Of a DNA stretch of 64,000 nt, positions 8,576 through 44,904 are shown one piece after another (within the stretch, counting starts at the first letter, position 1; each line of letters starts with the position of its first letter). Both the position numbers and the translations under genes were made by a program. A model generated the notes under the pieces. The model made no database searches. It was not told the DNA's origin and saw only the letters and a list, made by a program, of their open reading frames with translations. Source of the stretch: Bradyrhizobium sp. Ash2021 (GTDB lineage: Bacteria > Pseudomonadota > Alphaproteobacteria > Rhizobiales > Xanthobacteraceae); NCBI RefSeq assembly GCF_031202265.1, contig NZ_CP100604.1, positions 1,178,001-1,242,000 of the forward strand, written 5' to 3'.

Positions 8576-9598
8576 TTAACGCCACCCCAGGGCGGGAGCG
8601 ACGTGGGTCAGGATCGCTTCGATCACATGCGCGTTGTAGGCAACGCCCAATTGGTTGGGAACGGTCAGCAGCAGCGTATCGGCCTCGGTGATAGCTTCGT
8701 CTTTCCTGAGCTGCTCGATTAGGACATGCGGCTCGGCGGCATAGCTACGGCCGAAGATCGCCCGGGTCCTCTCGTCGATGAATCCGATCTGGTCATCATC
8801 TTCGCGCCCGCGCCCAAAATAGGTGCGGTCACGATCGTCCATCAGTGCGAAGATGCTGCGGCTGACTGAGACCCGCGGCTCGCGCGTCTGACCGGCCTCT
8901 TTCCAGGCGGCACGGTAGGCCCGGATCTGAGCGGCCTGCTGCACATGGAAGGCCTCGCCTGTTTCGTCGTTTTTGAGCGTCGAGCTCTGCAGGTTCATCC
9001 CAAGCTTTGCTGCCCAGATCGCCGTGGCGTTCGAGCCGGCGCCCCACCAAATCCGGTCGCGCAGGCCTTCAGAATAGGGTTCCAGGCGCAACAGCCCGGG
9101 CGGATTTGGAAACATGGGTCGTGGATTCGGCTGGGCGAAGCCCTCGCCGCGCAGCAGATCGAAGAACACCTCGGCATGACGCCGCCCCATGTCGGCGTCA
9201 TTCTGGCCCTCGGCCGGTTGATAACCGAAATACCGCCAGCCATCGATCACCTGCTCGGGCGAGCCTCGGCTGATGCCGAGCTGCAGCCGCCCGCCGGCGA
9301 TGAGATCGGCTGCGCCCGCGTCCTCGGCCATGTAGAGCGGGTTCTCGTAGCGCATGTCGATCACCGCCGTCCCGATCTCGATGCGGCTTGTCTTCGCGCC
9401 GACGGCCGCTAGGAGCGGGAAAGGCGAGGCAAGCTGGCGGGCGAAGTGATGGACTCGAAAATAGGCCCCGTCCGCGCCCAACTCCTCGGCCGCGACGGCG
9501 AGCTCGATGGATTGCAGGAGCGTGTCTGCGGCCGAGCGGGTCTGTGATTGCGACGAGGGCGTCCAGTGCCCGAACGAGAGAAAGCCGATCTTCTTCAT
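8576..9598 (-). CDS. LLM-class flavin-dependent oxidoreductase
   Basis: A 340-residue TIM-barrel flavoenzyme of the bacterial luciferase family. It shows the LLM order: an N-terminal GFLSFGHW strand, HHFARQLASPFPLLAAVGAKT (split here across the helix) and the substrate-side region with LGISRGSPEQVIDG. These enzymes use FMNH2 or F420 to oxidise diverse substrates. The substrate is unknown. It is convergent with nothing close and lies 40 bases upstream of the Gre-like gene on the same strand. Confidence 0.88.
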   Translation of the reverse strand: MKKIGFLSFGHWTPSSQSQTRSAADTLLQSIELAVAAEELGADGAYFRVHHFARQLASPFPLLAAVGAKTSRIEIGTAVIDMRYENPLYMAEDAGAADLIAGGRLQLGISRGSPEQVIDGWRYFGYQPAEGQNDADMGRRHAEVFFDLLRGEGFAQPNPRPMFPNPPGLLRLEPYSEGLRDRIWWGAGSNATAIWAAKLGMNLQSSTLKNDETGEAFHVQQAAQIRAYRAAWKEAGQTREPRVSVSRSIFALMDDRDRTYFGRGREDDDQIGFIDERTRAIFGRSYAAEPHVLIEQLRKDEAITEADTLLLTVPNQLGVAYNAHVIEAILTHVAPALGWR

Positions 9599-10023
9599 GC
9601 GGGCAATCTATTGATATCCAGGTTGGTTTGCGACCGTCCGCGCTCGTGCGCGGACGGCTTTGGCTACTTCATGAACGGGGGTCCCGCCAGCGAGCGGCAG
9701 CATAACGGAGCCGCAGGCGCGTGGCGGTGGTCAGATTCGAAATGGCTTCCCGCACACCACCTGGCAGTCAGCGCCTGTCCCAGGAGCCGCGTCATGGCCT
9801 GGGAGGGGCCGCCCTGCCGAGGGCCGGGCGCGGCCGGCTCGAAGCGCGAAGGCCCGGTCCTGGAAGGTCGGAGACAAAAGTAGAACCGCTGTGCCAGTTT
9901 TGTGTCAGTTGGCACATGCTTTCTTGGTCTGTTCCGGCCGAAATAGCTGAAATGGCTGAAACCGACGACAAAGCCAAAACGTCGAATTATGCTGATTTTA
10001 CAGGGCTTTTGCGATGGAATGAA
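9599..10023. other. Intergenic region upstream of tRNA-Thr
   Basis: About 425 bases with no credible gene. Open frames here cross the tRNA or lack protein character. GC-rich stretches with short palindromes are present but none is convincing as a terminator. Confidence 0.5.
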
Positions 10024-10098
10024 TGGTGCTGCCAGACAGGATTGAACTGTCGACCTCTCCATTACCAATGGAGTGCTCTACCACTGAGCTACGGCAGC
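10024..10098 (-). tRNA. tRNA-Thr (anticodon GGT)
   Basis: Read on the minus strand, the sequence folds as a complete cloverleaf: the acceptor stem GCTGCCG pairs with the 3' end, the D arm is normal (GTAGCTCAGTGGTAGAGC), the anticodon stem CTCCA/TGGAG encloses loop TTGGTAA with anticodon GGT, and the T arm holds GTTCAATCC. CCA is encoded at the 3' end (10024-10026). Confidence 0.96.
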
Positions 10099-10496
10099 AT
10101 GCCCGGATCAGGAGAATCGGCCCAAACACGGGCCCTACAGGCGGCCGGTTCTTGCCACAACGACCCCTCTGGCGCAAGCACGCGGCAGGGTCAGAAGCGT
10201 AGAAGAAGGCCCAAAAAATCGGCTGAGTCACCCGCTTTCTGCTTCAACCCTTGCAACTCCGGGCCGATCCGGTTCCCGGTTTCCTCAGTCCGCTCCGCCA
10301 GCGCTTTAAGCGGGCCGGACATGGCCTCGAATTCGATCATTTTGCGGGATTCGTCGCATTTGAAGCGCCGTTACTCCCCAAATGGCCAGTTGCCGATATT
10401 GGCGGAAAATCCCAGCGTGGCATCATGAGCGGGGCTGGCCGTGCGGCGTTGGTTGCGCCCGTGCATGTGGTTCGGTCGCGGGTGTATTCTCCCGGA
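10099..10496. other. Intergenic region, nothing recognised
   Basis: About 400 bases between tRNA-Thr and the small basic-protein gene. An open frame spans it but it covers the tRNA region and has no recognisable domain. Confidence 0.45.
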
Positions 10497-30746: not shown

Positions 30747-30938
30747 ATGAAATCCATGTCAGCGGCTGAAGCCAAAAACGGCTTTGGCCAATTGATTGAC
30801 ATCGCGCGTCAGGAACCGGTGAAGATCGAGAAACACGGCCGCGCTGTGGTCGTCGTGATCAGCATCGAGGACTACGAGCGTCTGACGGCGGCCAAGGCCA
30901 GCCCCCAAGAGTCGATTGAAGAACACCAAGGGGAATAA
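30747..30938 (+). CDS. Phd/YefM-family antitoxin-like protein
   Basis: A 63-residue protein with the Phd/YefM core: SAAEAKNGFGQLIDIARQEPV (shown in part) and VVVVISIEDYERL, the N-terminal DNA-binding dimer. The C-terminal 15 residues would be the toxin-neutralising tail. No ParE, Doc or YoeB-type toxin follows; the next start, hsdM GTG 30940, is one base after its stop. It therefore seems to be the first gene of the restriction operon and may act as its repressor, probably at the inverted repeats at 30636 and 30712. Confidence 0.88.
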   Translation: MKSMSAAEAKNGFGQLIDIARQEPVKIEKHGRAVVVVISIEDYERLTAAKASPQESIEEHQGE

Positions 30939-30939
30939 A

Positions 30940-30995
30940 GTGGCCAAGCAGAGTGCGAAAGTTCAGAGCCTCAGTGCGTTTGCATGGTCAATCGC
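30940..30995 (+). pseudogene. hsdM: hsdM 5' fragment, cut by IS256-type element
   Basis: GTG at 30940, with AAGGGG upstream, opens MAKQSAKVQSLSAFAWSIA, the classic start of HsdM. The frame ends at the insertion sequence. Joining base 30995 to 32422 (one copy of the 9-bp duplication) continues exactly in frame as DILRGDLKQSEYGKVILPF, giving a 674-residue protein. Confidence 0.9.
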
Positions 30996-32412
30996 GAGCT
31001 ATCGCCAATTTTTGGTGACGGCCGGGCCGGTCAGGCGGCGGCGGTTATGGGCTGACGGTCAGCGGGTTTAGCGATGACCTCGATCCCGTTGTTGAATGTC
31101 ACACCGAGAACGAGTTTTGGCAACTGGTTGTGGCCATCGAGACGACGCCAGCTTTTCTGCGCGGCCTCGAGCAGCTTGAAGACCATCGCGAGCGCCGTCC
31201 TGTTGGACAGGCATCCCTTCGATCGGATCGTGCGGTGGCGCACGGTAGCGAAGGTGCTTTCAATGGGATTGGTCGTTCGCAGGTGTTTCCAGTGCTCGGC
31301 CGGGAAGTCGTAGAACGCCAGTAGCGTGTCCCGATCCTTGCCCAGGCAGTCGGCCGCCTTCTCGTATTTGGGCGTGTAGCTCGCGATGAAGGCGTCGAAC
31401 GCCAGCTCGGCGGCGGCCTTGGTTTCGGCCATCCAGATCTCCTGCAACGCGCGTTTGGCCTTCGGCTGCTGGCTCTTCGGCAACTTGGCGAGTACGTTCG
31501 CGGTCTTGTGCACCCAGCAGCGCTGCTCGCGCGTTTTCGGCCAGACCTCACCGGCGGCCTTCCAGAACCCGAGCGCGCCATCGGCGATGGTAAGCCGCGG
31601 CGGCACGTCGAGCCCGCGCCGCTTCAGATCGAGCAGCAGATCGCGCCAGTCCTGCGCGCTCTCGCGGGCGCCATCGGTGAAGCCGACCAGTTCCTTGCGG
31701 CCTTCCGGCGTCGCGCCGATCAGCACCAGGATGCACTGCTTTTCGTCTTCGAGGCGTGCCTGGAGATGGATGCCATCGGCCCAGATGTAGACGTAACGTT
31801 TCGCCGACAGATCGCGCCTCTGCCACGCGGTGTGTTCGTCAAGCCAGCCGTCCTTCAGGCGGCCGATGGCGGATGCCGACAATCCGGCAGCATCCTTGCC
31901 GAGCAGTGCTGCCAGCGCCTCGGAGAAGTCGCCGGTCGAGATACCCTTCAGGTAAAGGATCGGCAGCAGCGTCTCGATCGATTTAGAGCGGCGCATATAG
32001 GGCGGCAGGATCGAGGGCGAGAACCGGATGCGGTCGGGGTCGGTAGCGTCCGCCTCGCGATCGCGCACACGCGGCTGGCGGACGGCGACCGGACCGATAC
32101 CGGTCATCACCTCGCGCTCCGGCAGGTGACCGTGGCGCACGACCCGCTGGTGGCCGTCTGCGGTCTTCAAATCGGCATGCTTGCCGAGAAAGTCCGCGAC
32201 CTCGGCCTCGACCGCCTGGGCCAACAGAACACGTGCCCCAGTACGCAAGATTTCCGTGAGTTGATCGTCGACGTTTGCTGGCTGAATCAGCTTGATGATG
32301 TTATCTTTGGACACGGCATATCGCTCCTTCGGTGGAGAAGTGGAGGCGTCAAGCACCCCCACGATATGCCGCCTTTCCGATTCCCGCCGTCACCAACTTT
32401 CAGCGATAGCTC
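30996..32412 (-). mobile_element. IS256-family insertion sequence, 1417 bp, inside hsdM
   Basis: Both ends carry inverted repeats beginning GAGCTATCGC and continuing to a shared TTGGTGACGGC (left 30996-31022, right 32386-32412). They are flanked by the 9-bp direct repeat GTCAATCGC (30987-30995 and 32413-32421). The element carries one intact transposase in the direction opposite to hsdM. Confidence 0.95.
31031..32362 (-). CDS. IS256-family transposase (intact)
   Basis: A 443-residue DDE transposase. YIWADGIHLQ holds the first Asp, LTIADGALGFWKA the second and TNPIESTFATVRHRT the Glu. The C-x2-H-like RCWVHKTANVLAKLP is the family signature. A start at GTG 32314 is also possible. No frame damage, so the element may still be active. 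Confidence 0.95.
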   Translation of the reverse strand: MGVLDASTSPPKERYAVSKDNIIKLIQPANVDDQLTEILRTGARVLLAQAVEAEVADFLGKHADLKTADGHQRVVRHGHLPEREVMTGIGPVAVRQPRVRDREADATDPDRIRFSPSILPPYMRRSKSIETLLPILYLKGISTGDFSEALAALLGKDAAGLSASAIGRLKDGWLDEHTAWQRRDLSAKRYVYIWADGIHLQARLEDEKQCILVLIGATPEGRKELVGFTDGARESAQDWRDLLLDLKRRGLDVPPRLTIADGALGFWKAAGEVWPKTREQRCWVHKTANVLAKLPKSQQPKAKRALQEIWMAETKAAAELAFDAFIASYTPKYEKAADCLGKDRDTLLAFYDFPAEHWKHLRTTNPIESTFATVRHRTIRSKGCLSNRTALAMVFKLLEAAQKSWRRLDGHNQLPKLVLGVTFNNGIEVIAKPADRQPITAAA

Positions 32413-34390
32413 GTCAATCGCCGACATCCTGAGAGGCGACTTAAAGCAATCCGAATATGGCAAGGTGATTCTACCATTCGTCGTTCTTCGCCGGCTTGAC
32501 TGCCTTCTCAGAGAATCAAAAAAGGCCGTTCTGGAAGCCTCGGCTACTCTGCCGGCTGGCGTCGACGAAGCCACACGCGACATGATCCTATTCGGAGCCG
32601 TCGGCGGCAACGTCAAGGTCTACAATCTTTCCCGGTTCACATTCGAGAGTCTCCGGGGGCAAGAACCAGCCCAATTGCATGCGAACCTGGTGGACTACAT
32701 CACCAGCTTCTCCGCCAATGTACGCGACATATTCCTCGACAAGTTCCTCTTCACTGACCAGCTCAAACGTCTCAAGGAAGGTGGCATTCTCTGGAATGTG
32801 TTCGAGCGGTTCTGCGAGATCGACCTGCATCCCGACACCGTTTCCAATATCGAGATGGGCTATCTGTTCGAGGAGTTGATCAGGCGCTTCTCGGAAATCT
32901 CGAACGAGACCGCTGGTGAGCACTTCACCCCACGCGAGGTCATTCGCCTAATTGTCGATCTTCTCATCGCCAACGATGACGCCAAGCTCACCGGGCGCGG
33001 GATCATACGTCAGGTTTACGACCCGGCATGCGGCACGGGCGGCATGCTCGCGCTGACGGAAGAGGCGCTTAAAGATTTTAATCCGTCGATCCGCGTCGAG
33101 CTGTTCGGGCAGGAGCTGAATGGTGAGTCGTTCGGTATTTGCAAATCCGATATGCTGGTCACGGGTCATGATCCGGAACAGATCACATTCGGCAATACGC
33201 TGACGCAGGACGCCCACAAGGGAAAGCGCTTCCACTACATGCTTTCCAATCCTCCTTACGGCGTCGACTGGAAAAAGTATCAGGACCCGATCAAAGCGGA
33301 AGCGGACACGCAAGGTTTCGATGGCCGATTCGGCGCAGGTACGCCGCGGATTTCGGACGGCCAGTTGCTCTTTCTGCAGCATATGATCTCGAAGATGCGC
33401 GATGACGAGGTGGGCTCTCGAATTGGCATTGTCATGAACGGCTCTCCGCTTTTCACTGGCGGAGTCGGTTCGGGTGAAAGTGAAATTCGCCGATGGATGC
33501 TGGAGAATGACTGGGTTGAAGCGGTTGTCGCCTTGCCCACTGACCTTTTCTACAACACTGGTATCCAAACCTATGTTTGGCTGCTCACTAACCGCAAACC
33601 CGTAAATCGCCGTGGCAAGGTGCAGCTAATTGATGCTTCCGGTGAGCGGTTTTGGCGATCCCTGCGCAAATCGCTCGGCTCCAAGCGCCGCGAAATTTCT
33701 GGTGAGGGGCGTGCAGAGATTGTCCGCATCTACGCCGGATTTCTGAACGGCGAGAGCGGTGAGAACGACGTCTCGAAGATTTTCGACGTAACGGATTTCG
33801 GCCATCGCGAGATTCGCATTGAACGTCCGCTCAGGCTAAACTATCAGGCAAGTGAAAACCGTATCGAGAGGGTAAAAGCCGAGAAGGCGTTTCTCAAACT
33901 TAACATCGCCCAACAGGAGCAGATCATCGATGCTTTAGGGCGTCTGCCGAACACCCTATTCACCGACCGCGACAAATTTGAGAAGGCCCTAACTAAGGCG
34001 CTTAAGTCCACCGACCTAACGGTCGGTACGGCAGTCCGCAAATTGATCATCACTGGTTTGTCTGAGCGTGATGAAAGCGCAGCTATTTGCACTGATACGC
34101 ATGGACAATCAGAATGTGATGCCGAACTTCGCGATCACGAGTTGGTGCCGCTCAAAGAGGATTGGCGGGAATACGTCACCCGCGAGGTCACGCCGTTCGC
34201 AGCGGACGCGTGGGTCGACGAAAGCTATCGTGACGCTCGTGATGGGGAAATCGGTCGAGTAGGCTACGAGATAAATTTCAACCGCTATTTCTACCGGTTT
34301 GTGGCTCCGCGCCCGCTTGAGGAAATCGACACTGAGCTCAAGGTGCTGGAGGCTGAGATTGCTGGGTTGCTGAAAGAGGTGGCAGCGTGA
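32366..34390 (+). CDS. hsdM: Type I restriction-modification methyltransferase subunit HsdM, possible hybrid start in IS
   Basis: The body of HsdM, which with HsdS methylates adenine in the recognition site. Motif I reads YDPACGTGGMLAL (about residues 216-228) and motif IV SNPPYGVDW (about 292-300), both intact. An N-terminal helical HsdM_N domain precedes. The native start at 30940 is separated by the IS256-type element. An ATG at 32366 inside the IS end reads in frame (MPPFRFPPSPTFSD) straight into the gene and would yield again 674 residues, with the first 18 native residues replaced. Whether it is translated is unknown. Its stop overlaps the hsdS start. Confidence 0.85.
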   Translation: MPPFRFPPSPTFSDSSSIADILRGDLKQSEYGKVILPFVVLRRLDCLLRESKKAVLEASATLPAGVDEATRDMILFGAVGGNVKVYNLSRFTFESLRGQEPAQLHANLVDYITSFSANVRDIFLDKFLFTDQLKRLKEGGILWNVFERFCEIDLHPDTVSNIEMGYLFEELIRRFSEISNETAGEHFTPREVIRLIVDLLIANDDAKLTGRGIIRQVYDPACGTGGMLALTEEALKDFNPSIRVELFGQELNGESFGICKSDMLVTGHDPEQITFGNTLTQDAHKGKRFHYMLSNPPYGVDWKKYQDPIKAEADTQGFDGRFGAGTPRISDGQLLFLQHMISKMRDDEVGSRIGIVMNGSPLFTGGVGSGESEIRRWMLENDWVEAVVALPTDLFYNTGIQTYVWLLTNRKPVNRRGKVQLIDASGERFWRSLRKSLGSKRREISGEGRAEIVRIYAGFLNGESGENDVSKIFDVTDFGHREIRIERPLRLNYQASENRIERVKAEKAFLKLNIAQQEQIIDALGRLPNTLFTDRDKFEKALTKALKSTDLTVGTAVRKLIITGLSERDESAAICTDTHGQSECDAELRDHELVPLKEDWREYVTREVTPFAADAWVDESYRDARDGEIGRVGYEINFNRYFYRFVAPRPLEEIDTELKVLEAEIAGLLKEVAA

Positions 34391-35727
34391 CCACTTTGCA
34401 GGAACGTGTTCACGGCGCGTGTCCGCCAAAGACCTGGCAGCTGAATAAGCTTCATCGAGTTTTGCGGGTGCGCAAAGGGCACAAGAATACCGGGATGCGC
34501 GAAAGCAATCTGCTTTCACTTAGCTATGGCAAGATCGTCAACAAGGACATTGATAGCTCAGAGGGGCTTTTACCAGAAAGCTTTGAGACCTATCAGCTCG
34601 TTGAGCCTGGCAATATTGTTATGCGATTAACTGATCTGCAGAACGATAAACGTAGTTTGCGCCAAGCACTGGTTCATGAGCGCGGAATAATCACCTCGGC
34701 ATATGACGCTTTGGAAGTGGGGGCGGATCAAGACCCCCGCTTCTGGGCTTACGCGCTACTGGCATTGGATATTGCCAAATATTACTACTCACTTGGTGGC
34801 GGCGTCCGTCAATCGATCAAGTTCTCTGATTTCCCAAACGACTGGATCGCGACGCCCTCTTTGGAAGTTCAACGAGCGACTTCTGATTTTCTAGATCGCG
34901 AGATAGCCAAAATTGAACAGTTGATCGACAAGAAGCAACAGTTGATCAATCTACTGACCGTAAAGCGCGCATCGCACATTTATGAAACTGTCACCGGAAG
35001 AGCGTCTAAGGATGTTCTTTCAAAAAAGACCGGCAATGCATGGTTTCCTATTCTTCCAGACGGCTGGAAACTGGCACGCATAAAAAATGTTGTGACCAGC
35101 ATCTCTGACGGCCCGCACATCTCACCAGAATATGTAGATGAAGGAATTCCCTTCATCTCCGCTAGAAATGTCAAAGTCGATCGCTGGTCCCTCGATGACG
35201 CTAAGTACATCTCTCACGAACTTTATCGAGAGATCACAAAGAAGTCGAAGCCCGTAAGGGATGACGTGCTCTACACCAAGGGCGGCACTACCGGAATTGC
35301 ACGTTTAGTTGATTTGGAATTCGAATTCCACATATGGGTTCATGTGGCACTTTTAAAGATTCGACGGTCAGTTGCGTGCCCCGCATACGTCGCGCATACC
35401 CTAAACAGTTCTGGATGCTATGCGCAGTCGCAATTGTTCACACGTGGGGCGACCAATAACGACCTCGGTCTCAATCGCATGGCAAACATCTGTCTGCCGC
35501 TACCAACTTTACGAGAGCAGTGTACTATCGTAGATCGACTGAATAGCTCTTTGATACCTATCGATAAAGTCAGAAAAAGCATTGAAGCCTCAGTTGAGCG
35601 CCTGCGCGAGTACCGGTCCTCATTGATTACGGCCGCTGTCACCGGGCAGATCGACGTGGCTACTTGGACGACGCAAGTCGCAAAAAATAACTATCCGGAG
35701 CAGATCGAAGAGGCAATGAGGGCATGA
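34387..35727 (+). CDS. hsdS: Type I restriction specificity subunit HsdS
   Basis: A 446-residue subunit with two target-recognition domains, each followed by a conserved coiled coil. The first TRD covers about residues 15-170 and ends with the helix IAKIEQLIDKKQQLINLLTV; the second covers 220-385 and ends with a helix through ERLREYRSSLITAAVTGQID. The GTG start overlaps the hsdM stop by four bases. HsdS sets the DNA sequence recognised by the whole complex. Confidence 0.93.
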   Translation: MTTLQERVHGACPPKTWQLNKLHRVLRVRKGHKNTGMRESNLLSLSYGKIVNKDIDSSEGLLPESFETYQLVEPGNIVMRLTDLQNDKRSLRQALVHERGIITSAYDALEVGADQDPRFWAYALLALDIAKYYYSLGGGVRQSIKFSDFPNDWIATPSLEVQRATSDFLDREIAKIEQLIDKKQQLINLLTVKRASHIYETVTGRASKDVLSKKTGNAWFPILPDGWKLARIKNVVTSISDGPHISPEYVDEGIPFISARNVKVDRWSLDDAKYISHELYREITKKSKPVRDDVLYTKGGTTGIARLVDLEFEFHIWVHVALLKIRRSVACPAYVAHTLNSSGCYAQSQLFTRGATNNDLGLNRMANICLPLPTLREQCTIVDRLNSSLIPIDKVRKSIEASVERLREYRSSLITAAVTGQIDVATWTTQVAKNNYPEQIEEAMRA

Positions 35728-37550
35728 GGGAGATTCTTGGAAAGGCGAAAACCGTCCGGGAACTCCTCAAGGGAGTGAAGTACTCGATTGACTATTATCA
35801 ACGGGAATACAAATGGGGAGAGAAGCAGGCGGCCGAGCTGATCGACGACCTCACTGGGAAATTCTTGGAGGATTATCAGCCAAGTCATGCGCGCAAGCAG
35901 GTCTCGGAATACCCGCACTATTTTCTCGGCTCGATCATCATCAGCAAGAAAGACAGCGCGAGCTACATTGTTGACGGCCAGCAACGGCTTACGAGTCTGA
36001 CGCTGCTCCTGATCCTGCTTCGCAACCTGCAGGGCGGACGGCCAGACCAGGTCAATATTGATGAGCTCATCGTCTCGGAGAAGTTCGGCGAAAAATCATT
36101 CAACCTCGATGTCGATGAGCGCAATCCCTGCATGGAAGCGCTTTTCGAGGATACGGCATTCGATCCTTCCGACCGGTCAGAGTCGGTGCAGAACCTGTTT
36201 GCGCGGTATCGCGACATGGAAGCAGCTTGGCCGGAAGAGTTACGGGCGGATGCGCTTCCCTACTTTATCGATTGGATGTTGGAAAATGTGCATCTCGTAG
36301 AAATCACAGCCTATTCGGACGATGACGCATACACGATCTTCGAGACCATGAATGACCGCGGGCTCTCGCTGAGCCCAACGGACATGCTCAAAGGTTACCT
36401 GCTCGCTAACATCGATGAGCGTAAGCGGCTGTCCGCGAACCATCGGTGGCGAGAACGCATCATGGAGCTCAACGAAGCAGGGAAAGAGGTCGAAGCCGAT
36501 TGTTTCAAAGCTTGGCTGCGAAGCCAATATGCTACAAAAATTCGCGAACGCAAGAAGGGAGCGAAGCCCGAAGATTTCGACCGAATCGGCACCGAGTTCC
36601 ATCGCTGGCTGCGCGATGCCAGTGCGTCGGTAGGCCTCACAGGTTCGGATGATTTCTTCCGGTTCATCGACCGCGATTTTGATTTTTACGCTAAGCAGTA
36701 TCTGCGCCTTATGGAGGCCTCTCGCCGTCGAGTGGAGGGGCTTGAACTCGTCCAGTACAATGCGCAGCACGGCTTCACGCTGCAGTACATGCTGATTCTC
36801 GCGCCGCTGAAGCCGGATGACGATCCGCATGTAGTGGATGCGAAGATCAGGATTGTTGCGCGTTTCGTTGAGGTGCTCCTTGCCTGGCGTCTTTGGAATT
36901 TCCGCAGCATCGCATACTCCACGATGCAATACGCAATGTTCTTGGTCATGCGCGATATTCGAGGCCTTGATGCGGGGCCCCTTGCGGCGCGATTGCATGA
37001 GCAGCTGCTCAAGGAAACCGAGACTTTCGCGAGCAACGACCGGCTTCGCGTACACCAGCAGAACCGCTATGCCATCCACCGGCTTCTCGCGCGGCTTACC
37101 GACTACGTTGAGACGCAGTCAGGTCAAAGCTCTCGATATGCAGAATACATCGGCGAAGGCGGGGCTCGTTACGAGGTGGAGCATATTTGGGCCGACCATC
37201 CGGAACGCCATGCTGACGAATTTAACCACCCGTCGGACTTTGCGGAGCACCGTAACCGTATCGGAGGCCTTCTACTCTTGCCCAAGTCTTTTAATGCGAG
37301 CTATGGCGACCTGCCGTATGACGAGAAGCTGAAGCACTACCGCACCCAAAACCTGCTGGCCCACTCGCTGCATGCAGACTGCTACTCACATAATCCCGGC
37401 TTTCTACGATTCGTAAACGATTCCAAGCTGCCGTTCAAAGCGCGCGAAACCTTCAAGACGGCCGATATTGAAGAACGCGGGCAGCTTTACCGAATGCTGG
37501 CAGAGCAAGTCTGGGACCCTGAAGCGTTGCTGCGTGAGGTGCCGCAATGA
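35724..37550 (+). CDS. DUF262-DUF1524 (GmrSD-like) HNH protein
   Basis: A 608-residue protein. Residues about 10-230 are DUF262, a ParB/Srx-like nucleotide-hydrolysing domain with YQREYKW (25-31) and DGQQRLTSL (84-92). The C-terminal DUF1524 has the HNH-type nuclease pattern YEVEHIWADHP (His487) and HRNRIGGLLLLPKSFNAS about 25 residues later. This is the architecture of GmrSD/BrxU type IV enzymes that cut modified phage DNA. It is translationally coupled to both hsdS and hsdR (ATGA overlaps), so it belongs to the restriction operon. Confidence 0.9.
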   Translation: MREILGKAKTVRELLKGVKYSIDYYQREYKWGEKQAAELIDDLTGKFLEDYQPSHARKQVSEYPHYFLGSIIISKKDSASYIVDGQQRLTSLTLLLILLRNLQGGRPDQVNIDELIVSEKFGEKSFNLDVDERNPCMEALFEDTAFDPSDRSESVQNLFARYRDMEAAWPEELRADALPYFIDWMLENVHLVEITAYSDDDAYTIFETMNDRGLSLSPTDMLKGYLLANIDERKRLSANHRWRERIMELNEAGKEVEADCFKAWLRSQYATKIRERKKGAKPEDFDRIGTEFHRWLRDASASVGLTGSDDFFRFIDRDFDFYAKQYLRLMEASRRRVEGLELVQYNAQHGFTLQYMLILAPLKPDDDPHVVDAKIRIVARFVEVLLAWRLWNFRSIAYSTMQYAMFLVMRDIRGLDAGPLAARLHEQLLKETETFASNDRLRVHQQNRYAIHRLLARLTDYVETQSGQSSRYAEYIGEGGARYEVEHIWADHPERHADEFNHPSDFAEHRNRIGGLLLLPKSFNASYGDLPYDEKLKHYRTQNLLAHSLHADCYSHNPGFLRFVNDSKLPFKARETFKTADIEERGQLYRMLAEQVWDPEALLREVPQ

Positions 37551-40500
37551 ACGATCAAACTGTTCCACGAAGCGCCTCATCGATACACAAGGAAATCGTA
37601 CTCGAAGAGCACCTAGTCGGGCAGCTGATATCAAAGCACGGCTACGTTTTGCGCGGGCCGGACAATTACGATCGCGCCAGTGCTCTCGACCGAGAATTGC
37701 TGATCCGCTTCTTGAAGGGAACGCAACCCGAAGAATGGGCGAAGCTGGAGGCGCATTACTCGGGCTCAGCGGAGGCTGAGCTTTTCAAAAATCTTGAGAA
37801 AGCGCTGAAATCGCGATCGACGCTCGATGTGCTGCGGGCCGGGATCAAAATGATCCCCGGGATCAGGTTTATTCTTTGCTACTTCAAGCCGGCCAGCGCG
37901 CTTGAGCCGAAACGCGTGCAGGAATACGAAGCGAACATACTGTCAGTTATCCGGCAGGTCGGGTACAGCCTCAAGTCCGAGAACGCGATAGACACGGTGC
38001 TGTTTGTGAACGGTATCCCCGTCGTTACGCTGGAAATCAAGAATCTCTTGACGGGCTCGACGTTCAGGCATGCCGAGCGGCAGTACCGCGCGGACCGCTC
38101 GCCTGCAGGCGAGCCGCTCCTTACCTTCAAACGCGGGGCGCTCGTCCACTTCGCGCTGGACGAAGACAACGTCTCGATGACCACCCGGCTTTCAAACGGC
38201 AAGACGCGCTTCCTGCCATTCAACCGCGGGCGCGCAGGCGGTGCCGGCAACGAGGATATCGAGGACGAGTTCCGGGTTGCCTATCTTTACCAAGATGGCG
38301 GTTGGGGAAAAGCGGTTTTCTCGCGGGACGTGCTGCTCGACGTAATCGGACGCTTTATGCACCTGGAGAGCAGCGAGCGGGAAGAGACAATGATCTTTCC
38401 GCGGTTTCAGCAGTTAGACGCCGTGCGCAGAATAATAGCGCATGCGCGCTCCCGTGGTGCGGGTCAGAACTATCTCATTCAGCATTCGGCAGGATCGGGC
38501 AAATCGAACACGATAGGTTGGGTTGCCCATCAAGCGATCAATCTGCACGACGAAGCTGATCAGCCGATATTCAATACGGCGATCATTGTCACCGACCGCA
38601 TTGTGCTTGACCGTCAGCTGCAAAGTACGGTCTCGCAGTTCGAGCAGACACAGGGCGTGGTCAAAAAGATCGACGGTACGTCGCGCCAACTGAAGGACGC
38701 TATTGCCAAAGGCGCGCGCATCATAGTCACGACGATTCAGAAGTTCTCGACCGAGCACCTCAAGGAGATTTCGGGGCAGGGAAAGCGAAAATTCGCGGTA
38801 ATCGTTGATGAAGCTCATGGAAGCCAGTCCGGTAAGTCTGCCCAGGCGATGACCGAGGCCCTTACCCGCGAGGCTTCATCAAGTGACGACATCGAAGATT
38901 TGATCGCAGAATATCAGAAGCAGCGCGGGCCTCAGCCCAACATCAGTTTTCTCGCTTTCACAGCAACGCCACGGAACGTGACGCTGGAGCGGTTCGGGAT
39001 AAAGGGAGCCGATGGACTCCCACACCCATTTCACCTCTATTCCATGCGCCAAGCCATCGAGGAAGGCTTCATCCTCGACGTGCTGCAGAACTACATGACC
39101 TACAAAGCCTACTACCAGCTAGAGAAGGCCATTGAGGACGATCCCGAACTCAGTGGGCGGAGGGGGCAGCGCAGCGTCGCGCGCTTCGCATCGCTGCATC
39201 CAACCGCCATCGGCCAGAAGGTCGAGATTATCATCGAACATTTCCGCCGCCATGTGATGAGTGAAATAGGCGGGCAAGCGAAGGCGATGATAGTCACGCA
39301 GAGCCGCGAACATGCTCTCCGCTATTTCTTCGGCGTTCGCGACTACTTCAAAGCCAAAGGATACGCGGATCTTAAAGCTCTCGTGGCATTTTCGGGCGAG
39401 CTTAATCTGGACGGACAAACATATACCGAAGCTGAGCTGAATGGCTTCTCTGAAACCGAGTTACCTAGCCGCCTTGACGGGTTCAGGCCTGACGGCACGC
39501 CGTATCCGGATCAGTACCAGATTCTTATCGTCGCCGAGAAATACCAGACAGGTTTTGACCAACCGAAGCTCTGTGCGATGTATGTCGATCGGAAGCTCGC
39601 GGGTTTGCAGGCTGTACAGACCCTCTCCCGGCTGAACCGCACAAAAGCAGGGAAGGAGCAAACCTACATTCTTGACTTCCAGAATACGGTTGAAGACGTG
39701 CAAGCCGCTTTCCGGCCCTACTATGAGGTAACGAGCCTGGAGGCGATGTCCGATCCCAACCAAATCTACGAGTTGGAAGGCCGCCTCTTCAAGTTCGGAT
39801 TTCTCAACCGTGCCGAGATCGAGAGATTCTCGCAGACCTTTTACAAAGGGCCACTCGATGGAGCAGACCGCGCTCGCCTCGAAGGCCTGGTAAGGCATGC
39901 CGTCGCCCGATTTGAAGCCGAGGATGATGAAGGCAGACAGGAAGAATTTCGTCAGCTCCTTCGAAGCTACATGCGCTTCTACAGCTTTGTCGCGCAAGTG
40001 ATACGCCTTGAGGACACGGGCCTTGAGAAGCTGTATTCCTACGCCTCTTGGCTTGCCCGATTGCTTCCGAACCGCCAGCTGCCGCCAGAGATTGAGATAA
40101 CCGAGGATATGCTTCGTCTTCAGGCCTTCAAAGTTGTTCAGAAGGAGGAAGGCAGCGCGTCTCTTTCCGCCGGCGAGGCCGATCCGCTTCAGGCCATCAA
40201 AGAGTTCGGTGCGAAACCGTATACTGAGGATGAGAAGAAAGAACTTTCCGAGATCGTAAAGACCTTCAACGATCGTCACGGAACAGAGTTCACGGAAGCC
40301 GACATGGTTCGCTTTGAGCAGGTAAACCGTGAGGTGCTCAACGACGACATGACTGAAATGCTCCGAAACAATCCTCCCGACGTTGTCTATGCCGTCTTCC
40401 GGGATGCGTTTTTCCAAGGCGCAATCCGCATGTTTCAGCGTGACAACGAAATGCGCAATATCGTGCTGACGGATGCGAAAGCCCGCGAACAGGCGACACG

Positions 40501-40561
40501 GCACTTCTTCAACCGAGCGCTTCGCGAATCCCATGGTTCCAGACCGCAGGATAGGGCTTAA
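37547..40561 (+). CDS. hsdR: Type I restriction endonuclease subunit HsdR
   Basis: A 1004-residue motor/nuclease subunit that translocates unmodified DNA and cuts it. The N-terminal nuclease has D149 and the E163-x-K165 pair within VVTLEIKN (PD-(D/E)xK). Helicase motif I is HSAGSGKSNTIGW (Lys319) and motif II VDEAHGSQ (421-424); FTATPRN and QTLSRLNRT are motifs III and VI. The length is normal, nothing is missing. It starts in a 4-bp overlap with the DUF262 gene; its TAA shares one base with the next ATG. Confidence 0.95.
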   Translation: MNDQTVPRSASSIHKEIVLEEHLVGQLISKHGYVLRGPDNYDRASALDRELLIRFLKGTQPEEWAKLEAHYSGSAEAELFKNLEKALKSRSTLDVLRAGIKMIPGIRFILCYFKPASALEPKRVQEYEANILSVIRQVGYSLKSENAIDTVLFVNGIPVVTLEIKNLLTGSTFRHAERQYRADRSPAGEPLLTFKRGALVHFALDEDNVSMTTRLSNGKTRFLPFNRGRAGGAGNEDIEDEFRVAYLYQDGGWGKAVFSRDVLLDVIGRFMHLESSEREETMIFPRFQQLDAVRRIIAHARSRGAGQNYLIQHSAGSGKSNTIGWVAHQAINLHDEADQPIFNTAIIVTDRIVLDRQLQSTVSQFEQTQGVVKKIDGTSRQLKDAIAKGARIIVTTIQKFSTEHLKEISGQGKRKFAVIVDEAHGSQSGKSAQAMTEALTREASSSDDIEDLIAEYQKQRGPQPNISFLAFTATPRNVTLERFGIKGADGLPHPFHLYSMRQAIEEGFILDVLQNYMTYKAYYQLEKAIEDDPELSGRRGQRSVARFASLHPTAIGQKVEIIIEHFRRHVMSEIGGQAKAMIVTQSREHALRYFFGVRDYFKAKGYADLKALVAFSGELNLDGQTYTEAELNGFSETELPSRLDGFRPDGTPYPDQYQILIVAEKYQTGFDQPKLCAMYVDRKLAGLQAVQTLSRLNRTKAGKEQTYILDFQNTVEDVQAAFRPYYEVTSLEAMSDPNQIYELEGRLFKFGFLNRAEIERFSQTFYKGPLDGADRARLEGLVRHAVARFEAEDDEGRQEEFRQLLRSYMRFYSFVAQVIRLEDTGLEKLYSYASWLARLLPNRQLPPEIEITEDMLRLQAFKVVQKEEGSASLSAGEADPLQAIKEFGAKPYTEDEKKELSEIVKTFNDRHGTEFTEADMVRFEQVNREVLNDDMTEMLRNNPPDVVYAVFRDAFFQGAIRMFQRDNEMRNIVLTDAKAREQATRHFFNRALRESHGSRPQDRA

Positions 40562-42834
40562 TGACGCAAGGAGTTGATAAAGAAAGACTACAGCGGGAAC
40601 TCGACGTTTTGCGTCGGGATGCCCGCCATCTTTCATCCCAGGAAATTGCCGGGCACGCATGCAAGGCAAATCTGGAAATCAGCGACGCCCTCCGGCTTAT
40701 CAGCGAATATTCGCGAATTCGGTCTAAGGCGCCTTCTGGCTCGTTGCCTGACGCTATTGCCGATTTCGTATCCTCACTTTGCATTCAGTCACGCTGCGAG
40801 CGCGTGCTGGAATACACCGCCGGCGACACGCTGCTCACAGTGCGGTTTCTTCATAGCCATCCCGAGGCCCATCTCACGTATGTCGCGCGCAACGCGGATT
40901 TCGCGGCAGCTCTGCGACTCCTTCTTGCAGGGAAGACCGCTTTCATTTCTGCGGATATCGCAAGCGTTGTCGGGAGTGCTAAATGCGACGCAATCATTTG
41001 CGCGCCGCCGATCGGCTATCGGCCTCCCGGCGAGGACGGTGATGGATTCGGCAGCGATGTTGTCCGCGCGCTGGCGCCTCTGTTGGCGACGAACGGCATT
41101 CTTTGCTGGGTGACAGGCCGGGGCGTTCTCTTCAATCGCGCCTCCGCCAAGACTTTCGCTTCCCTCGCTGAGGTCGGATTACACGTATCGGCAATCATTG
41201 ATCTGGCGCCCGGAGCATTGGCAGGCACTGCCATCGAAGGTGCGCTCGTCGCGTTTCAGCGCAAGGACGACCTGCCGAAATTCGTCGGCATCCTCCGGGA
41301 CACCGAAAGCGCTGAGCTCCTGGCTTCGGCGCTTGTGGCCGGCCCATCCAAGAAGAGCGGCCCCGGATGGATGTGGCTTGACGCGAAGGACGAGCGAACT
41401 TTCGCTGACATTGAGCACGGCGAGCTGATCAAGAAGCTCACACCCAAGGGACGGCATAAGAAAGAGTCGCTGCGCTCACTTCTAGCGCATGACCGGATTG
41501 AGCGCGCAGACAAGCCTCTCCCGGAGAACGACCAGACAACGGCTTTTCTTTTTGTTCCAGAATACGCCGGCAGCCGCGTCACCGCCGACCTGCAGGAGCA
41601 GACGGTGAAGCCGACCGCGGTGTATCGCCTTGCAATCGATACCGCGCGGGCTAATCCACGTTTCTTGGCGCAGTTGCTCAATAGTCCGTTTGGCAGAGAG
41701 TTGCGCGATGCGGCGGCAAGTGGTTCTACCATACAACGCGTTCAGGTACCCGGTTTGCTTTCACTGGAACTACCGATCCCGGCAATTGCGACACAGGAAC
41801 GAATTGCGCGCATCAACAGCGATATCGCGCTGCTGCAGGCAGAGTTCCGCGATATGCAGACGGCTCTCGAACACGACTGGACGGCACTTGCGGACGCTGC
41901 AGATAAGATCGATGCCCTGAAAGGAGTACTCAATATCGAGCGGCAGATTGCGGATTGGTGGCGCGAATTGCCATACCCAATCGCAACCATTTATCGCCGC
42001 TACCAGGTTTCCATCGAGCCGAAAGAGCGCCTGGAAACTCTGCTGCACTTCTTCGAGATGTGCGCGGTTTACCTCGCGGCGGTTGGCGCAAGCCACGTGA
42101 AAGCCATGCGACAGGATTGGCAGGAAGTAATGGCGGGGTGGCTTCATCCCACTGGCTCTGCCGGGATTGAGCGTGCCGATTTCGGCTTCTGGATTGGTCT
42201 CGCTGGAGCAAGCCTAAAGGATGTAAGCCGCATCACCAGCGACAAGGATTTGCGTGCGGTTGCGACTGACGTGGCAGGTGCCGAGCTTGTCGAGTCGGCA
42301 AGCTCCATCGGAGCACTTGGTAAGTCGACCACCATTCTGGACGTCGCTAGACGCTACCGCAACTCCTGGAAAGGCCATGGCGGTCATATGAAGGCCAGCG
42401 ATGCGGCCCGCCTGGATAATGAACTGCAGCAGCAGATTCGCGATTTTTACGAGGCGACGGCCTCCACGCTTCGCCGGCTTCAGCTCGTGCGACCGGGGAT
42501 GGCCGAGGTGCTTGACTCCGGCATGAGGTACAAGATTGAAAAACTATCTGGCAGTGATCCCACCTTCGTGACGGAGATCGTCGAGTTGGTCAGGCCCACA
42601 AAGTCCAACACTCTGGCTTTCTGGATGGACGGGGCACGCACGATGTGCCGCGCGATGCCTTTCTTTCGTCTCGGGGCACCACAGCAGCCTCAGGAGACTA
42701 GCTTCTACGTGTTCAATCGCGTGGAAAAAGACGGCTTCCGTTGGATTTCCTTCCAAGAGGCACGCGAACAGGAGTTCGTCGCTCCCGACGATGAGCTGCT
42801 GAGCATCATTGCGCTCAGACGAGGCCCAGTCTGA
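40561..42834 (+). CDS. Degenerate N6-methyltransferase / S-like / HEPN-motif fusion protein
   Basis: A 757-residue protein coupled to hsdR (TAATG). Residues about 1-240 are an HsdM-type methyltransferase fold with ruined motifs: motif I reads VLEYTAGDTLLTV and motif IV CDAIICAPPIGY (148-150 APP instead of NPP), so methylation is unlikely. A middle part ends with PIPAIATQERIARINSDIAL (about 405-424), the form seen at the end of specificity domains. From about 465 the protein is helical and contains RRYRNSWKGHGG, R600-N601-x4-H606. An Arg followed by a polar residue and His five or six later is the catalytic signature of HEPN RNases (PrrC, RloC, Cas13). I infer a methylation- or DNA-sensing abortive-infection RNase. 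I do not know a named family of this architecture. Confidence 0.75.
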   Translation: MTQGVDKERLQRELDVLRRDARHLSSQEIAGHACKANLEISDALRLISEYSRIRSKAPSGSLPDAIADFVSSLCIQSRCERVLEYTAGDTLLTVRFLHSHPEAHLTYVARNADFAAALRLLLAGKTAFISADIASVVGSAKCDAIICAPPIGYRPPGEDGDGFGSDVVRALAPLLATNGILCWVTGRGVLFNRASAKTFASLAEVGLHVSAIIDLAPGALAGTAIEGALVAFQRKDDLPKFVGILRDTESAELLASALVAGPSKKSGPGWMWLDAKDERTFADIEHGELIKKLTPKGRHKKESLRSLLAHDRIERADKPLPENDQTTAFLFVPEYAGSRVTADLQEQTVKPTAVYRLAIDTARANPRFLAQLLNSPFGRELRDAAASGSTIQRVQVPGLLSLELPIPAIATQERIARINSDIALLQAEFRDMQTALEHDWTALADAADKIDALKGVLNIERQIADWWRELPYPIATIYRRYQVSIEPKERLETLLHFFEMCAVYLAAVGASHVKAMRQDWQEVMAGWLHPTGSAGIERADFGFWIGLAGASLKDVSRITSDKDLRAVATDVAGAELVESASSIGALGKSTTILDVARRYRNSWKGHGGHMKASDAARLDNELQQQIRDFYEATASTLRRLQLVRPGMAEVLDSGMRYKIEKLSGSDPTFVTEIVELVRPTKSNTLAFWMDGARTMCRAMPFFRLGAPQQPQETSFYVFNRVEKDGFRWISFQEAREQEFVAPDDELLSIIALRRGPV

Positions 42835-43690: not shown

Positions 43691-44904
43691 CTCAACCGGT
43701 CGACGCAACACAGGCGTTAAATCTCTCTGCTGGTGTTTCAAATTGCAAGGTCTCACGTGGTCGTTCATTTAGCTGACGAGCTACTTTGTTCAGATGGGCT
43801 TGCGAATGCATCGACAAGTCGGTGCCCTTAGGAAAGTACTGTCTCAGCAGGCCATTGGTATTCTCATTCGACCCGCGTTGCCACGGGCTTTGCGGATCGC
43901 AAAAATAGACGTCGATTTTGGTCGCCAACGTAAAGCGACGATGATCCGTAAGTTCCTTGCCCCGGTCCCAGGTCAGGGATTTATATAGCTCCTTTGGTAG
44001 CTTCTTCGCCTGCTTGATGAGCGCGGTGACAACCGTCCGGGTGTCCTTGCCTGCCACCTTGGCCAACATCACGTAACGGGTATGACGCTCGACCAAGGTC
44101 GCGATGTAGGTGTTGTTCGGCCCGGACAGGAGATCGCCCTCCCAATGACCAGGCACCGCCCGATCTTCAACCGCCGCCGGTCGCTGACGGATTGAGACGA
44201 TATCCTTGATATGCCCCCGTTTATCGCCATTCGGGTCAACCGGCCTGGAGCGACGCATCGAGCGCTTCGATCGAAGATGGCTAAGCAGCTCTTTCTTCAG
44301 CACGCCGCGCGCTTGGACAAACAGGCTGCGATAGATGGTCTCGTGTGACACCTGATTACACTCGTCTTCAGGGTGCGTTCTCTTCAGCCAACCGGCTATC
44401 TGCTCGGGGGACCAATCCAATCTGAGCTTCCCTGCCACCGCCTGCCGCAGCCGCGGATTGGTCGCTAACTTACAACATTTTGGACGACGAGATCGCGCCC
44501 AGGCATTCTCGTCCGCAAGTGTCGCTCGGTAGCGATCATAGCCGCCATTGCGACTCATTTCCCGGCTCACCGTCGAGGGTGAGCGGCCAAGCCGTTTGGC
44601 GATCGACCGTGCCGATTGATGTGCCGTAACGCCTCTGGAAATCTCCTCGCGTTCCGCGAGCGTCAACGCCAGCCTGGAGCGACGCCGCTCCGCAGGACGA
44701 ATCCCACCATGCGGAGCTACCAAAAAATAGATCGACGATGACTGCTTACCAAAAGCTCGTCCAATCGCCTTCAGCGACTCCCCACGCTTCCAGCGATCCC
44801 ATAACTCCGTCTTCTCTGCCGCAGTAAAACCTCTATGAAATCTCCGTTCCATCCCACACTCCATCTTTTCCCTCTAAGATAAAGTGTTGCGGCGACCGGT
44901 TGAG
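43691..44904 (-). mobile_element. IS30-family insertion sequence, about 1.2 kb
   Basis: Terminal inverted repeats of 21 bp with one mismatch: left 43691-43711 (CTCAACCGGTCGACGCAACAC) and right 44884-44904. The transposase stop codon lies inside the left repeat. No target duplication could be read from the flanks (CGG on the left, ACC on the right). Confidence 0.85.
43692..44864 (-). CDS. IS30-family transposase
   Basis: A 390-residue transposase. An N-terminal helix-turn-helix (residues about 10-50) and a second one with RSIAKRLGRSPSTVSREMSR precede the DDE core: GHWEGDLLSG (Asp), LTWDRGKEL (Asp) and PWQRGSNENTNGLLRQYFP (Glu). Complete by eye. Confidence 0.95.
   Translation of the reverse strand: MECGMERRFHRGFTAAEKTELWDRWKRGESLKAIGRAFGKQSSSIYFLVAPHGGIRPAERRRSRLALTLAEREEISRGVTAHQSARSIAKRLGRSPSTVSREMSRNGGYDRYRATLADENAWARSRRPKCCKLATNPRLRQAVAGKLRLDWSPEQIAGWLKRTHPEDECNQVSHETIYRSLFVQARGVLKKELLSHLRSKRSMRRSRPVDPNGDKRGHIKDIVSIRQRPAAVEDRAVPGHWEGDLLSGPNNTYIATLVERHTRYVMLAKVAGKDTRTVVTALIKQAKKLPKELYKSLTWDRGKELTDHRRFTLATKIDVYFCDPQSPWQRGSNENTNGLLRQYFPKGTDLSMHSQAHLNKVARQLNERPRETLQFETPAERFNACVASTG

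What the first reader, a model, noticed from the sequence alone, without database searches (positions are those of the whole stretch)
40561..42834. Degenerate methyltransferase fused to a HEPN-motif domain at the end of a type I restriction operon
The protein keeps the shape of HsdM but its catalytic motifs are ruined (VLEYTAGDTLL for motif I, APP instead of NPP for motif IV). It then has a specificity-like segment and a C-terminal helical domain with R600-N601-x4-H606 in RRYRNSWKGHGG, the HEPN RNase signature. HEPN RNases PrrC and RloC are known partners of type I systems and kill the cell when restriction fails; here the sensor would be a dead methyltransferase instead of an ABC/AAA domain. 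I know no described system with this architecture, though I could not search.
Basis: partly seen in the sequence, partly recalled or inferred. Interest (0 to 1): 0.86.

Follow-up and report, generated by a model that had tools for sequence, protein, structure and literature searches.

The report
Dead methyltransferase with likely RNA-cutting domain
At the end of a bacterial DNA-restriction operon sits a protein whose DNA-methylating part looks broken in every close relative that could be read, while an attached, probably RNA-cutting part is kept almost unchanged, which suggests a suicide switch wired to the restriction system, though no activity has been tested.

Summary
The protein at 40561-42834 (757 aa) is real, with 120 homologues: an HsdM-like fold (residues 1-290), one HsdS-like half, a helical domain (465-640) and a beta domain. 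The methylase looks dead: the catalytic N/D of motif IV occurs in 0 of 107 rows. R600, N601 and H606 occur in 111/112, 111/112 and 110/111 rows, and RNx4H recurs in actinobacterial relatives about 24% identical. Fold searches of the isolated C-terminus found nothing significant. Profile comparison did find a relation to Abi2/Swt1-type HEPN RNases (86%, E 4.7e-6, 0 of 200 shuffles as good); the target families were picked after seeing shared motifs, and the actinobacterial subset alone does not match. X lies in an hsd operon in 3 of 5 loci examined. A 2013 survey stated that R-M-linked HEPN domains do not fuse to methylases; this family is an exception. Likely role: a PrrC-like RNase effector whose sensor is a dead methylase-specificity module. 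RNase activity, trigger and killing are untested. An IS256-like element splits hsdM here, so the operon may be impaired.

The parts
40561..42834 (+). the finding gene (X): pseudo-HsdM + half HsdS + HEPN-like + beta domain, 757 aa
   Evidence: ORF; 120 homologues; AF2 model pLDDT 91.4, pTM 0.63
40561..40743 (+). residues 1-61, HsdM-type N-terminal helices; least conserved part
   Evidence: VIA alignments to type I HsdM 3lkd_B and 3khk_B start at residues 2 and 1; mean pairwise identity 0.28 in near full-length rows
40744..41340 (+). residues 62-260, degenerate methyltransferase domain
40804..40836 (+). motif I region VLEYTAGDTLL; E84 kept in 98/102 rows, Gly loop not kept (G in 5 of 102 rows at 87 and 1 of 102 at 89)
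41002..41016 (+). motif IV region APPIG; N/D at residue 148 in 0 of 107 rows
41443..41784 (+). residues 295-408, single target-recognition-like domain
   Evidence: PADLOC Specificity_I; profile hits to S.BsaXI and type I S subunits; mean pairwise identity 0.56
41785..41952 (+). residues 409-464, helical arm as in HsdS conserved regions
41953..42480 (+). residues 465-640, HEPN-like helical domain; most conserved domain
   Evidence: hhalign vs Abi2+Swt1 HEPN 86.4%, E 4.7e-6, 138 columns, 0/200 shuffles; mean pairwise identity 0.67; no fold match
42358..42378 (+). R600-N601-x4-H606 (RNSWKGH), HEPN Rx4-6H motif
   Evidence: 111/112, 111/112, 110/111 rows; invariant in the 15-row alignment A5 that includes four actinobacterial relatives
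42481..42831 (+). residues 641-757, beta domain of unknown family
   Evidence: AF2 strands; mean pairwise identity 0.63
32366..34390 (+). hsdM, part behind the IS; read in frame from an ATG inside the IS end; motifs DPACGTGG and NPPY intact
34387..35727 (+). hsdS
   Evidence: PF01420; PADLOC Specificity_I E 1.5e-74
35724..37550 (+). GmrSD-type gene, DGQQR motif present
   Evidence: PF03235 E 6.3e-33, PF07510 E 1.4e-7
37547..40561 (+). hsdR, Walker A, DEAH and TLEIK present
   Evidence: PF04313, PF18766, PF22679
30747..30938 (+). Phd/YefM-type antitoxin or repressor at the original head of the operon
   Evidence: PF02604 E 1.1e-13; stop 1 base before the original hsdM GTG
30940..30995 (+). original 5' end of hsdM, cut off by the IS
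   Evidence: left flank encodes VAKQSAKVQSLSAFAWSIA, like the HsdM N-terminus of L002
30996..32412 (-). IS256-like element in hsdM; 9-bp duplication at 30987-30995 and 32413-32421 (the name IS256 for a Mutator-type transposase is recalled)
   Evidence: inverted ends, Transposase_mut E 3e-62, flanks

Best explanation
X is a restriction-coupled HEPN ribonuclease. Its N-terminal two thirds is a catalytically dead M-S module (HsdM fold plus one target-recognition domain) that no longer methylates and serves as the recognition part: it binds DNA, the Hsd complex, or something that attacks that complex. In the uninfected cell the HEPN domain is held off; when the module meets its trigger the HEPN domain cuts host RNA (tRNA by analogy with PrrC) and stops growth, as a second line behind restriction. 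Shown: lost methylase motifs, conserved RNx4H, profile homology to Abi2/Swt1 HEPN, membership of an hsd operon in 3 of 5 loci. Inferred: loss of methylase activity, RNase activity, the trigger, the inhibition, cell arrest.
For: Catalytic N/D of motif IV in 0 of 107 rows while R600/N601/H606 are in 111/112, 111/112, 110/111. HEPN is the most conserved domain (0.67 mean pairwise identity against 0.37 for the methylase, 87 near full-length of 120 rows). Profile match to Abi2+Swt1 HEPN: 86.4%, E 4.7e-6, 138 columns with E499, FGFW and RN..H aligned; 0 of 200 shuffles; FCD 0.8% and HsdM N-terminus 0.2% as other controls. Head-to-tail operon. In L002 HsdM is 82%, HsdR 79%, X 55% identical while HsdS is 25%; hsdM-hsdS-hsdR-X in Gordonia plasmid L005. 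The TRD of X is conserved (mean 0.56; window vs L002 0.57) while HsdS of that pair is 25% identical, so X may see something constant. Of 23 Streptomyces-type relatives 22 keep RNxWx[GA]H (the other is a 641-aa protein without it) while 21 have EIPY for NPPY. PrrC is a precedent for a HEPN RNase held off by a type I enzyme (PMC3710099 passages).
Against: No significant fold match of the isolated domain. Single-sequence Pfam matches to a HEPN family: 1 of 15 fragments at E 0.13, 0 of 59 members at E<=1, 0 of 8 actinobacterial proteins at E<=10. The actinobacterial subset alone gives 1.3% against Abi2+Swt1, less than the 2.2% it gives against the FCD control, though 19.5% against Swt1. The HEPN targets were not chosen blind: PF18731 followed a weak hit, and the Abi2 set was collected after I had seen FGFW and RN..H in L016; the shuffles do not correct for that. 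The typical Ex3[KR] is only half met: E499 is invariant, but no K/R follows. Two of five loci lack hsd genes in the DNA held: L003 beside an Mrr nuclease, L006 alone. No activity data. hsdM is split by an IS in this strain.
Confidence: 0.6

Rival explanations
1. X is a non-catalytic accessory or competitor subunit of the type I enzyme: a pseudo M-S protein that assembles with HsdM/HsdR to change specificity or dampen restriction, its HEPN-like domain only binding RNA or making dimers.
For: HsdM-like N-terminus and half-S arm kept; methylase motifs lost; same hsdM/hsdR subfamily in L002.
Against: R600, N601, H606, G607 and G608 are among the 63 of 739 scored positions that are at least 98% conserved; a pure binding domain would not obviously need a fixed RNx4H. 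No hsd genes found in the DNA held around L003 and L006.
Confidence: 0.17
2. X is a self-contained toxin or defence protein that merely travels in defence clusters; its M-S module recognises DNA by itself and no Hsd contact is needed.
For: Solo gene on a Streptomyces plasmid; beside an Mrr nuclease in L003.
Against: Overlapping position in the window, inside the operon between hsdS and hsdR in L002, and directly behind hsdR in Gordonia.
Confidence: 0.15
3. The helical domain is not HEPN; the RNx4H motif and FGFW are convergent and the domain does something else.
For: No fold match; weak or no single-sequence Pfam matches; actinobacterial subset alone 1.3%, below its FCD control of 2.2%.
Against: Profile match over 138 columns with three motifs in order, 0 of 200 shuffles; in the model E499 lies in the first long helix, R600-N601 at the end of a long helix, H606 in the loop behind it, then a last helix.
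Confidence: 0.08

Closest known systems
Abi2/AbiD/AbiF and Swt1-like HEPN proteins (Pfam PF07751, PF18731)
   Same: Aligned E in the first helix, FGFW (FG.W in 100 of 120 Abi2-set rows) and RN..H (RN.{1,3}H in 120 of 120)
   Different: The Abi2 set is small proteins (202-281 aa); the Swt1 hits are small proteins or ORFs of up to 1223 aa that I take for DUF499-type fusions from memory, not scanned for methylases. X has five residues between R and H, L016 has four.
PrrC with the PrrI type Ic R-M system; RloC
   Same: HEPN domain in the C-terminal part of a larger protein; PrrC is encoded with hsdMSR (PMC3710099 passages)
   Different: PrrC/RloC have an ABC ATPase; X has an HsdM fold plus one TRD and no ATPase match.
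DUF499-centred BREX-related (Hma) systems
   Same: HEPN fused into an R-M-like operon with N6-MTase and helicase (PMC12839542 passages)
   Different: There the HEPN is fused to the AAA ATPase and the MTase is a separate component.
Type I HsdM and related proteins (3lkd, 7eew, PacII M1M2S, S.BsaXI)
   Same: Fold and domain order of residues 1-441; that 7eew_A is an M protein with a TRD-like end is my reading of where it matches
   Different: Catalytic motifs lost; HEPN-like and beta domains added.
MADS (MAD2, MAD5)
   Same: Weak profile matches: mad2 2.7e-5, mad5 5.3e-6
   Different: NCBIfam MAD5 scores 16.7 against a cut-off of 400. Only the five operon proteins were scanned.
PARIS
   Same: Abstract starts in a search listing only, rest recalled: a defence system induced by anti-restriction proteins
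   Different: No sequence relation tested or claimed; only a model for the trigger.

Membership tests
HEPN superfamily (Abi2/Swt1 clade) | Rx4-6H with a polar residue (N/D/H) after R (PMC3710099 section 6) | tested here: met
   R600-N601-x4-H606, 111/112, 111/112, 110/111 rows; 22 of 23 Streptomyces-type relatives
HEPN superfamily (Abi2/Swt1 clade) | second conserved acidic residue upstream, typically in Ex3[KR] | tested here: inconclusive
   E499 in 116/116 rows, aligned with the E of the Abi2+Swt1 consensus; no K/R at the fourth place after it
HEPN superfamily (Abi2/Swt1 clade) | profile similarity to known HEPN families (the 2013 survey reports typically 75-98% in HHpred) | tested here: met
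   86.4%, E 4.7e-6 against Abi2+Swt1; 64.7% against Abi2 and 26.8% against Swt1 alone; Apea 0.3%; actinobacterial subset alone 1.3%. Targets not chosen blind
HEPN superfamily (Abi2/Swt1 clade) | HEPN fold in a structure comparison | tested here: inconclusive
   Foldseek and VIA gave nothing significant; absence from these lists excludes nothing
HEPN superfamily (Abi2/Swt1 clade) | metal-independent RNase activity | not testable with these tools
   needs biochemistry
Type I modification subunit HsdM | HsdM fold | tested here: met
Type I modification subunit HsdM | catalytic motifs I (DPACGxG) and IV (NPPY/F) (motifs recalled) | tested here: not met
   motif IV N/D 0 of 107; Gly loop of motif I not kept
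Type I specificity subunit HsdS | two TRDs with two conserved helical regions (recalled) | tested here: not met
   one TRD-like segment 295-408 and one arm 409-464
PrrC/RloC anticodon nucleases | N-terminal ABC ATPase | tested here: not met
   no ATPase match in Pfam at E<=1; N-terminus is HsdM-like
PrrC/RloC anticodon nucleases | tRNA anticodon cleavage | not testable with these tools
   needs biochemistry

The most novel reading that the evidence does not exclude
X is a built-in bait: its dead M-S module copies the surface of the real M2S enzyme so that phage anti-restriction proteins (DNA mimics such as Ocr or ArdA) bind it and thereby release the HEPN RNase, so disarming restriction kills the infected cell. 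Its conserved TRD beside freely changing HsdS, and its loss of catalysis while the fold stays, would then be explained.
Probability: 0.15. Interest if true: 0.88.

Novelty: new variant of a known kind. Interest (0 to 1): 0.64.

Why it matters
HEPN RNases guarded by restriction enzymes are known (PrrC), but the sensor there is an ATPase. The 2013 HEPN survey concluded that R-M-linked HEPN domains fuse to nucleases, helicases and ATPases 'but not to the methylases' (PMC3710099, passages; its Table 1 does list HEPN-M occasionally fused to nucleic acid methylases). This family breaks that statement, and its methylase motifs appear to have decayed in two lineages (inferred, no tree built) while the putative RNase motif stays. 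It offers a compact test of how a cell senses that restriction has failed.

Tried and rejected

Rarity: besides the own genome, no match in 384 genomes of the class and 396 of the order (full profile, E<=1e-20) or 397 of the phylum (C-terminal profile, E<=1e-3); the samples overlap and only the best few first-look candidates per genome were scored. No relative in viral contigs or phage records. Genome contigs gave 2 loci from one scan with two peptide patterns.

Considered and rejected: that X is an active modification enzyme (motifs), a PrrC (no ABC ATPase), or a chance ORF (120 homologues). Apea-type HEPN did not match (0.3%), but Apea against Abi2, both HEPN families, also fails (1.0%), so a miss there says little.

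Full report
What is there. The window is part of a 9.70 Mb, two-contig genome. Five genes overlap or touch head to tail on the + strand: hsdM (ending 34390), hsdS 34387-35727, a GmrSD-type gene 35724-37550, hsdR 37547-40561 and the finding gene X 40561-42834. HsdM keeps DPACGTGG and NPPY, HsdR keeps Walker A, DEAH and TLEIK, GmrSD keeps DGQQR. X is extra to an R-M-S set.

X has a family. A search of 5.8 billion proteins gave 120 homologues, down to 42% local identity and 37% in alignment A2; 87 of 120 are near full length. The candidate list was truncated, so 120 is a lower bound. Of the 120 rows one carries an informative name, 'restriction endonuclease subunit S' (P0014, Acidiphilium).

The HEPN-like part. 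Against it: Foldseek and VIA of the isolated C-terminus (model pLDDT 91.7, pTM 0.90) found no significant match; Pfam scans of single members found PF18731 in 1 of 15 fragments at E 0.13, no HEPN family in 59 members at E<=1 and none in 8 actinobacterial proteins. For it: R600, N601, H606, G607, G608, E499, G542, F543 and W544 are each at least 99% conserved. A profile of the domain (111 close and 23 actinobacterial sequences) matches a combined Abi2+Swt1 HEPN profile with 86.4% probability, E 4.7e-6, over 138 columns; E499, FGFW and RN..H line up in order; 0 of 200 column shuffles reach the score (44.6 against a maximum of 23.4); controls give 0.8% (FCD) and 0.2% (HsdM N-terminus), and the family's own methylase domain 0.1%. 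The 111 close sequences alone give 67.4%. Against Abi2 alone the joint profile gives 64.7% and against Swt1 alone 26.8%, with 0 of 100 shuffles each. As yardstick, Swt1 against Abi2 gives 96.0%, the DUF499-like Swt1 subset against Abi2 26.3%, and Apea against Abi2 only 1.0%, although all are HEPN families. Two cautions: the 23 actinobacterial sequences by themselves give 1.3% against Abi2+Swt1, below their 2.2% against FCD, though 19.5% against Swt1; and the targets were not chosen blind, since I collected the Abi2 set after noticing FGFW and RN..H in L016. Abi2 and Swt1 form one group in the 2013 HEPN survey (PMC3710099, passages; its section 6 read in full).

Distant relatives. tblastn in plasmids found 4 of 72,556 records: three Streptomyces and one Gordonia. 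In Gordonia pJH63-1 the relative follows hsdM-hsdS-hsdR directly; it is annotated as two ORFs in the same frame (8939-10387 and 10403-11458 of L005), so an in-frame stop probably splits it. In Streptomyces sp. NBC_00055 it is a 943-aa 'N-6 DNA methylase' standing alone, with a clear N6_Mtase match (E 9e-30). Of 23 such proteins (query and 22 hits), 21 have EIPY and 2 (Streptosporangium) NIPY for NPPY; 22 keep RNxWx[GA]H, the remaining one being a 641-aa protein without the motif. The Gordonia pieces have DPAVGLG, DAPW and RNRWSGH. So catalysis may have been lost at least twice while the HEPN-like motif stayed; this is inference without a tree.

Gene neighbourhoods. Five loci were examined: window, L002 and L005 in hsd operons; L003 next to an Mrr_cat nuclease (E 3.7e-18) with no HsdM or HsdR match in 14.3 kb, though only about 2 kb upstream is held; L006 alone. 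Between window and L002 HsdM is 82%, HsdR 79%, X 55% and HsdS 25% identical. Within X the window-L002 identities are 0.40 methylase, 0.57 TRD, 0.73 HEPN, 0.73 beta; over 87 near full-length members the means are 0.37, 0.56, 0.67, 0.63. The TRD of X therefore seems less free to change than HsdS; only that one HsdS pair and the Gordonia one (25%) were compared.

Operon head. An IS256-like element (30996-32412, Transposase_mut E 3e-62, inverted ends, 9-bp duplication) lies at about codon 19 of hsdM. The original hsdM start (GTG 30940) follows a Phd/YefM-type gene by one base (PF02604 E 1.1e-13). In L002 a ribbon-helix-helix gene (RHH_9, E 1.7e-7) sits ahead of hsdM. A small antitoxin-like DNA binder at the head of both operons would suit an operon that carries a toxic enzyme, but two loci prove little.

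Mechanism. The most economical reading is a PrrC-like second line: an M-S module that cannot methylate recognises DNA, the Hsd complex or its attacker, and controls an HEPN RNase. PrrC, held off by PrrI and released when T4 Stp disables it, is the precedent (PMC3710099 passages). The bait version, with DNA-mimic inhibitors as trigger, is the boldest reading and untested.

Literature. Seven full-text searches were made (in only 20 of 69 and 8 of 13 papers were listed). From titles and abstract starts, and from the passages read in two papers, I saw no description of a HEPN domain fused to an HsdM/HsdS-like protein; most subscription papers and bioRxiv preprints are not held. PMC3710099 says in its text that R-M-associated HEPN domains fuse 'not to the methylases', though its Table 1 lists HEPN-M occasionally fused to nucleic acid methylases. 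PMC12839542 describes HEPN fused to DUF499 ATPases (passages).

Verdict. It is a new variant of a known kind.

Noticed in passing
window 30996-32412: IS256-like element splits hsdM near its start with a 9-bp duplication; the remaining hsdM reads in frame from an ATG inside the IS end, so the restriction operon may be poorly expressed in this strain.
   Followed up: yes
window 30747-30938; L002 6296-6481: A Phd/YefM-type gene heads the operon here and a ribbon-helix-helix gene lies ahead of hsdM in L002; possible operon repressor or antitoxin.
   Followed up: partly
window 35724-37550: GmrSD-type gene between hsdS and hsdR; no tblastn match to it in L002, L003, L005 or L006.
   Followed up: partly
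window 42481-42831 (X residues 641-757): Well-predicted beta domain, conserved into Actinobacteria (Y716, R720, R727 invariant in the 15 rows of A5), without any family match.
   Followed up: partly
L005 10385-10402: The Gordonia relative is split by what looks like a single in-frame stop, just at the end of its specificity-like part.
   Followed up: no
L002 15268-19127: Directly behind hsdR in L002 lie what look by eye like an OLD-type ATPase and a UvrD-type helicase, an arrangement resembling Gabija (recalled, not tested).
   Followed up: no
window 43692-44864: A second transposase gene (HTH_38 and rve; IS30-like by recall) downstream of X, so mobile elements flank the operon on both sides.
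   Followed up: no
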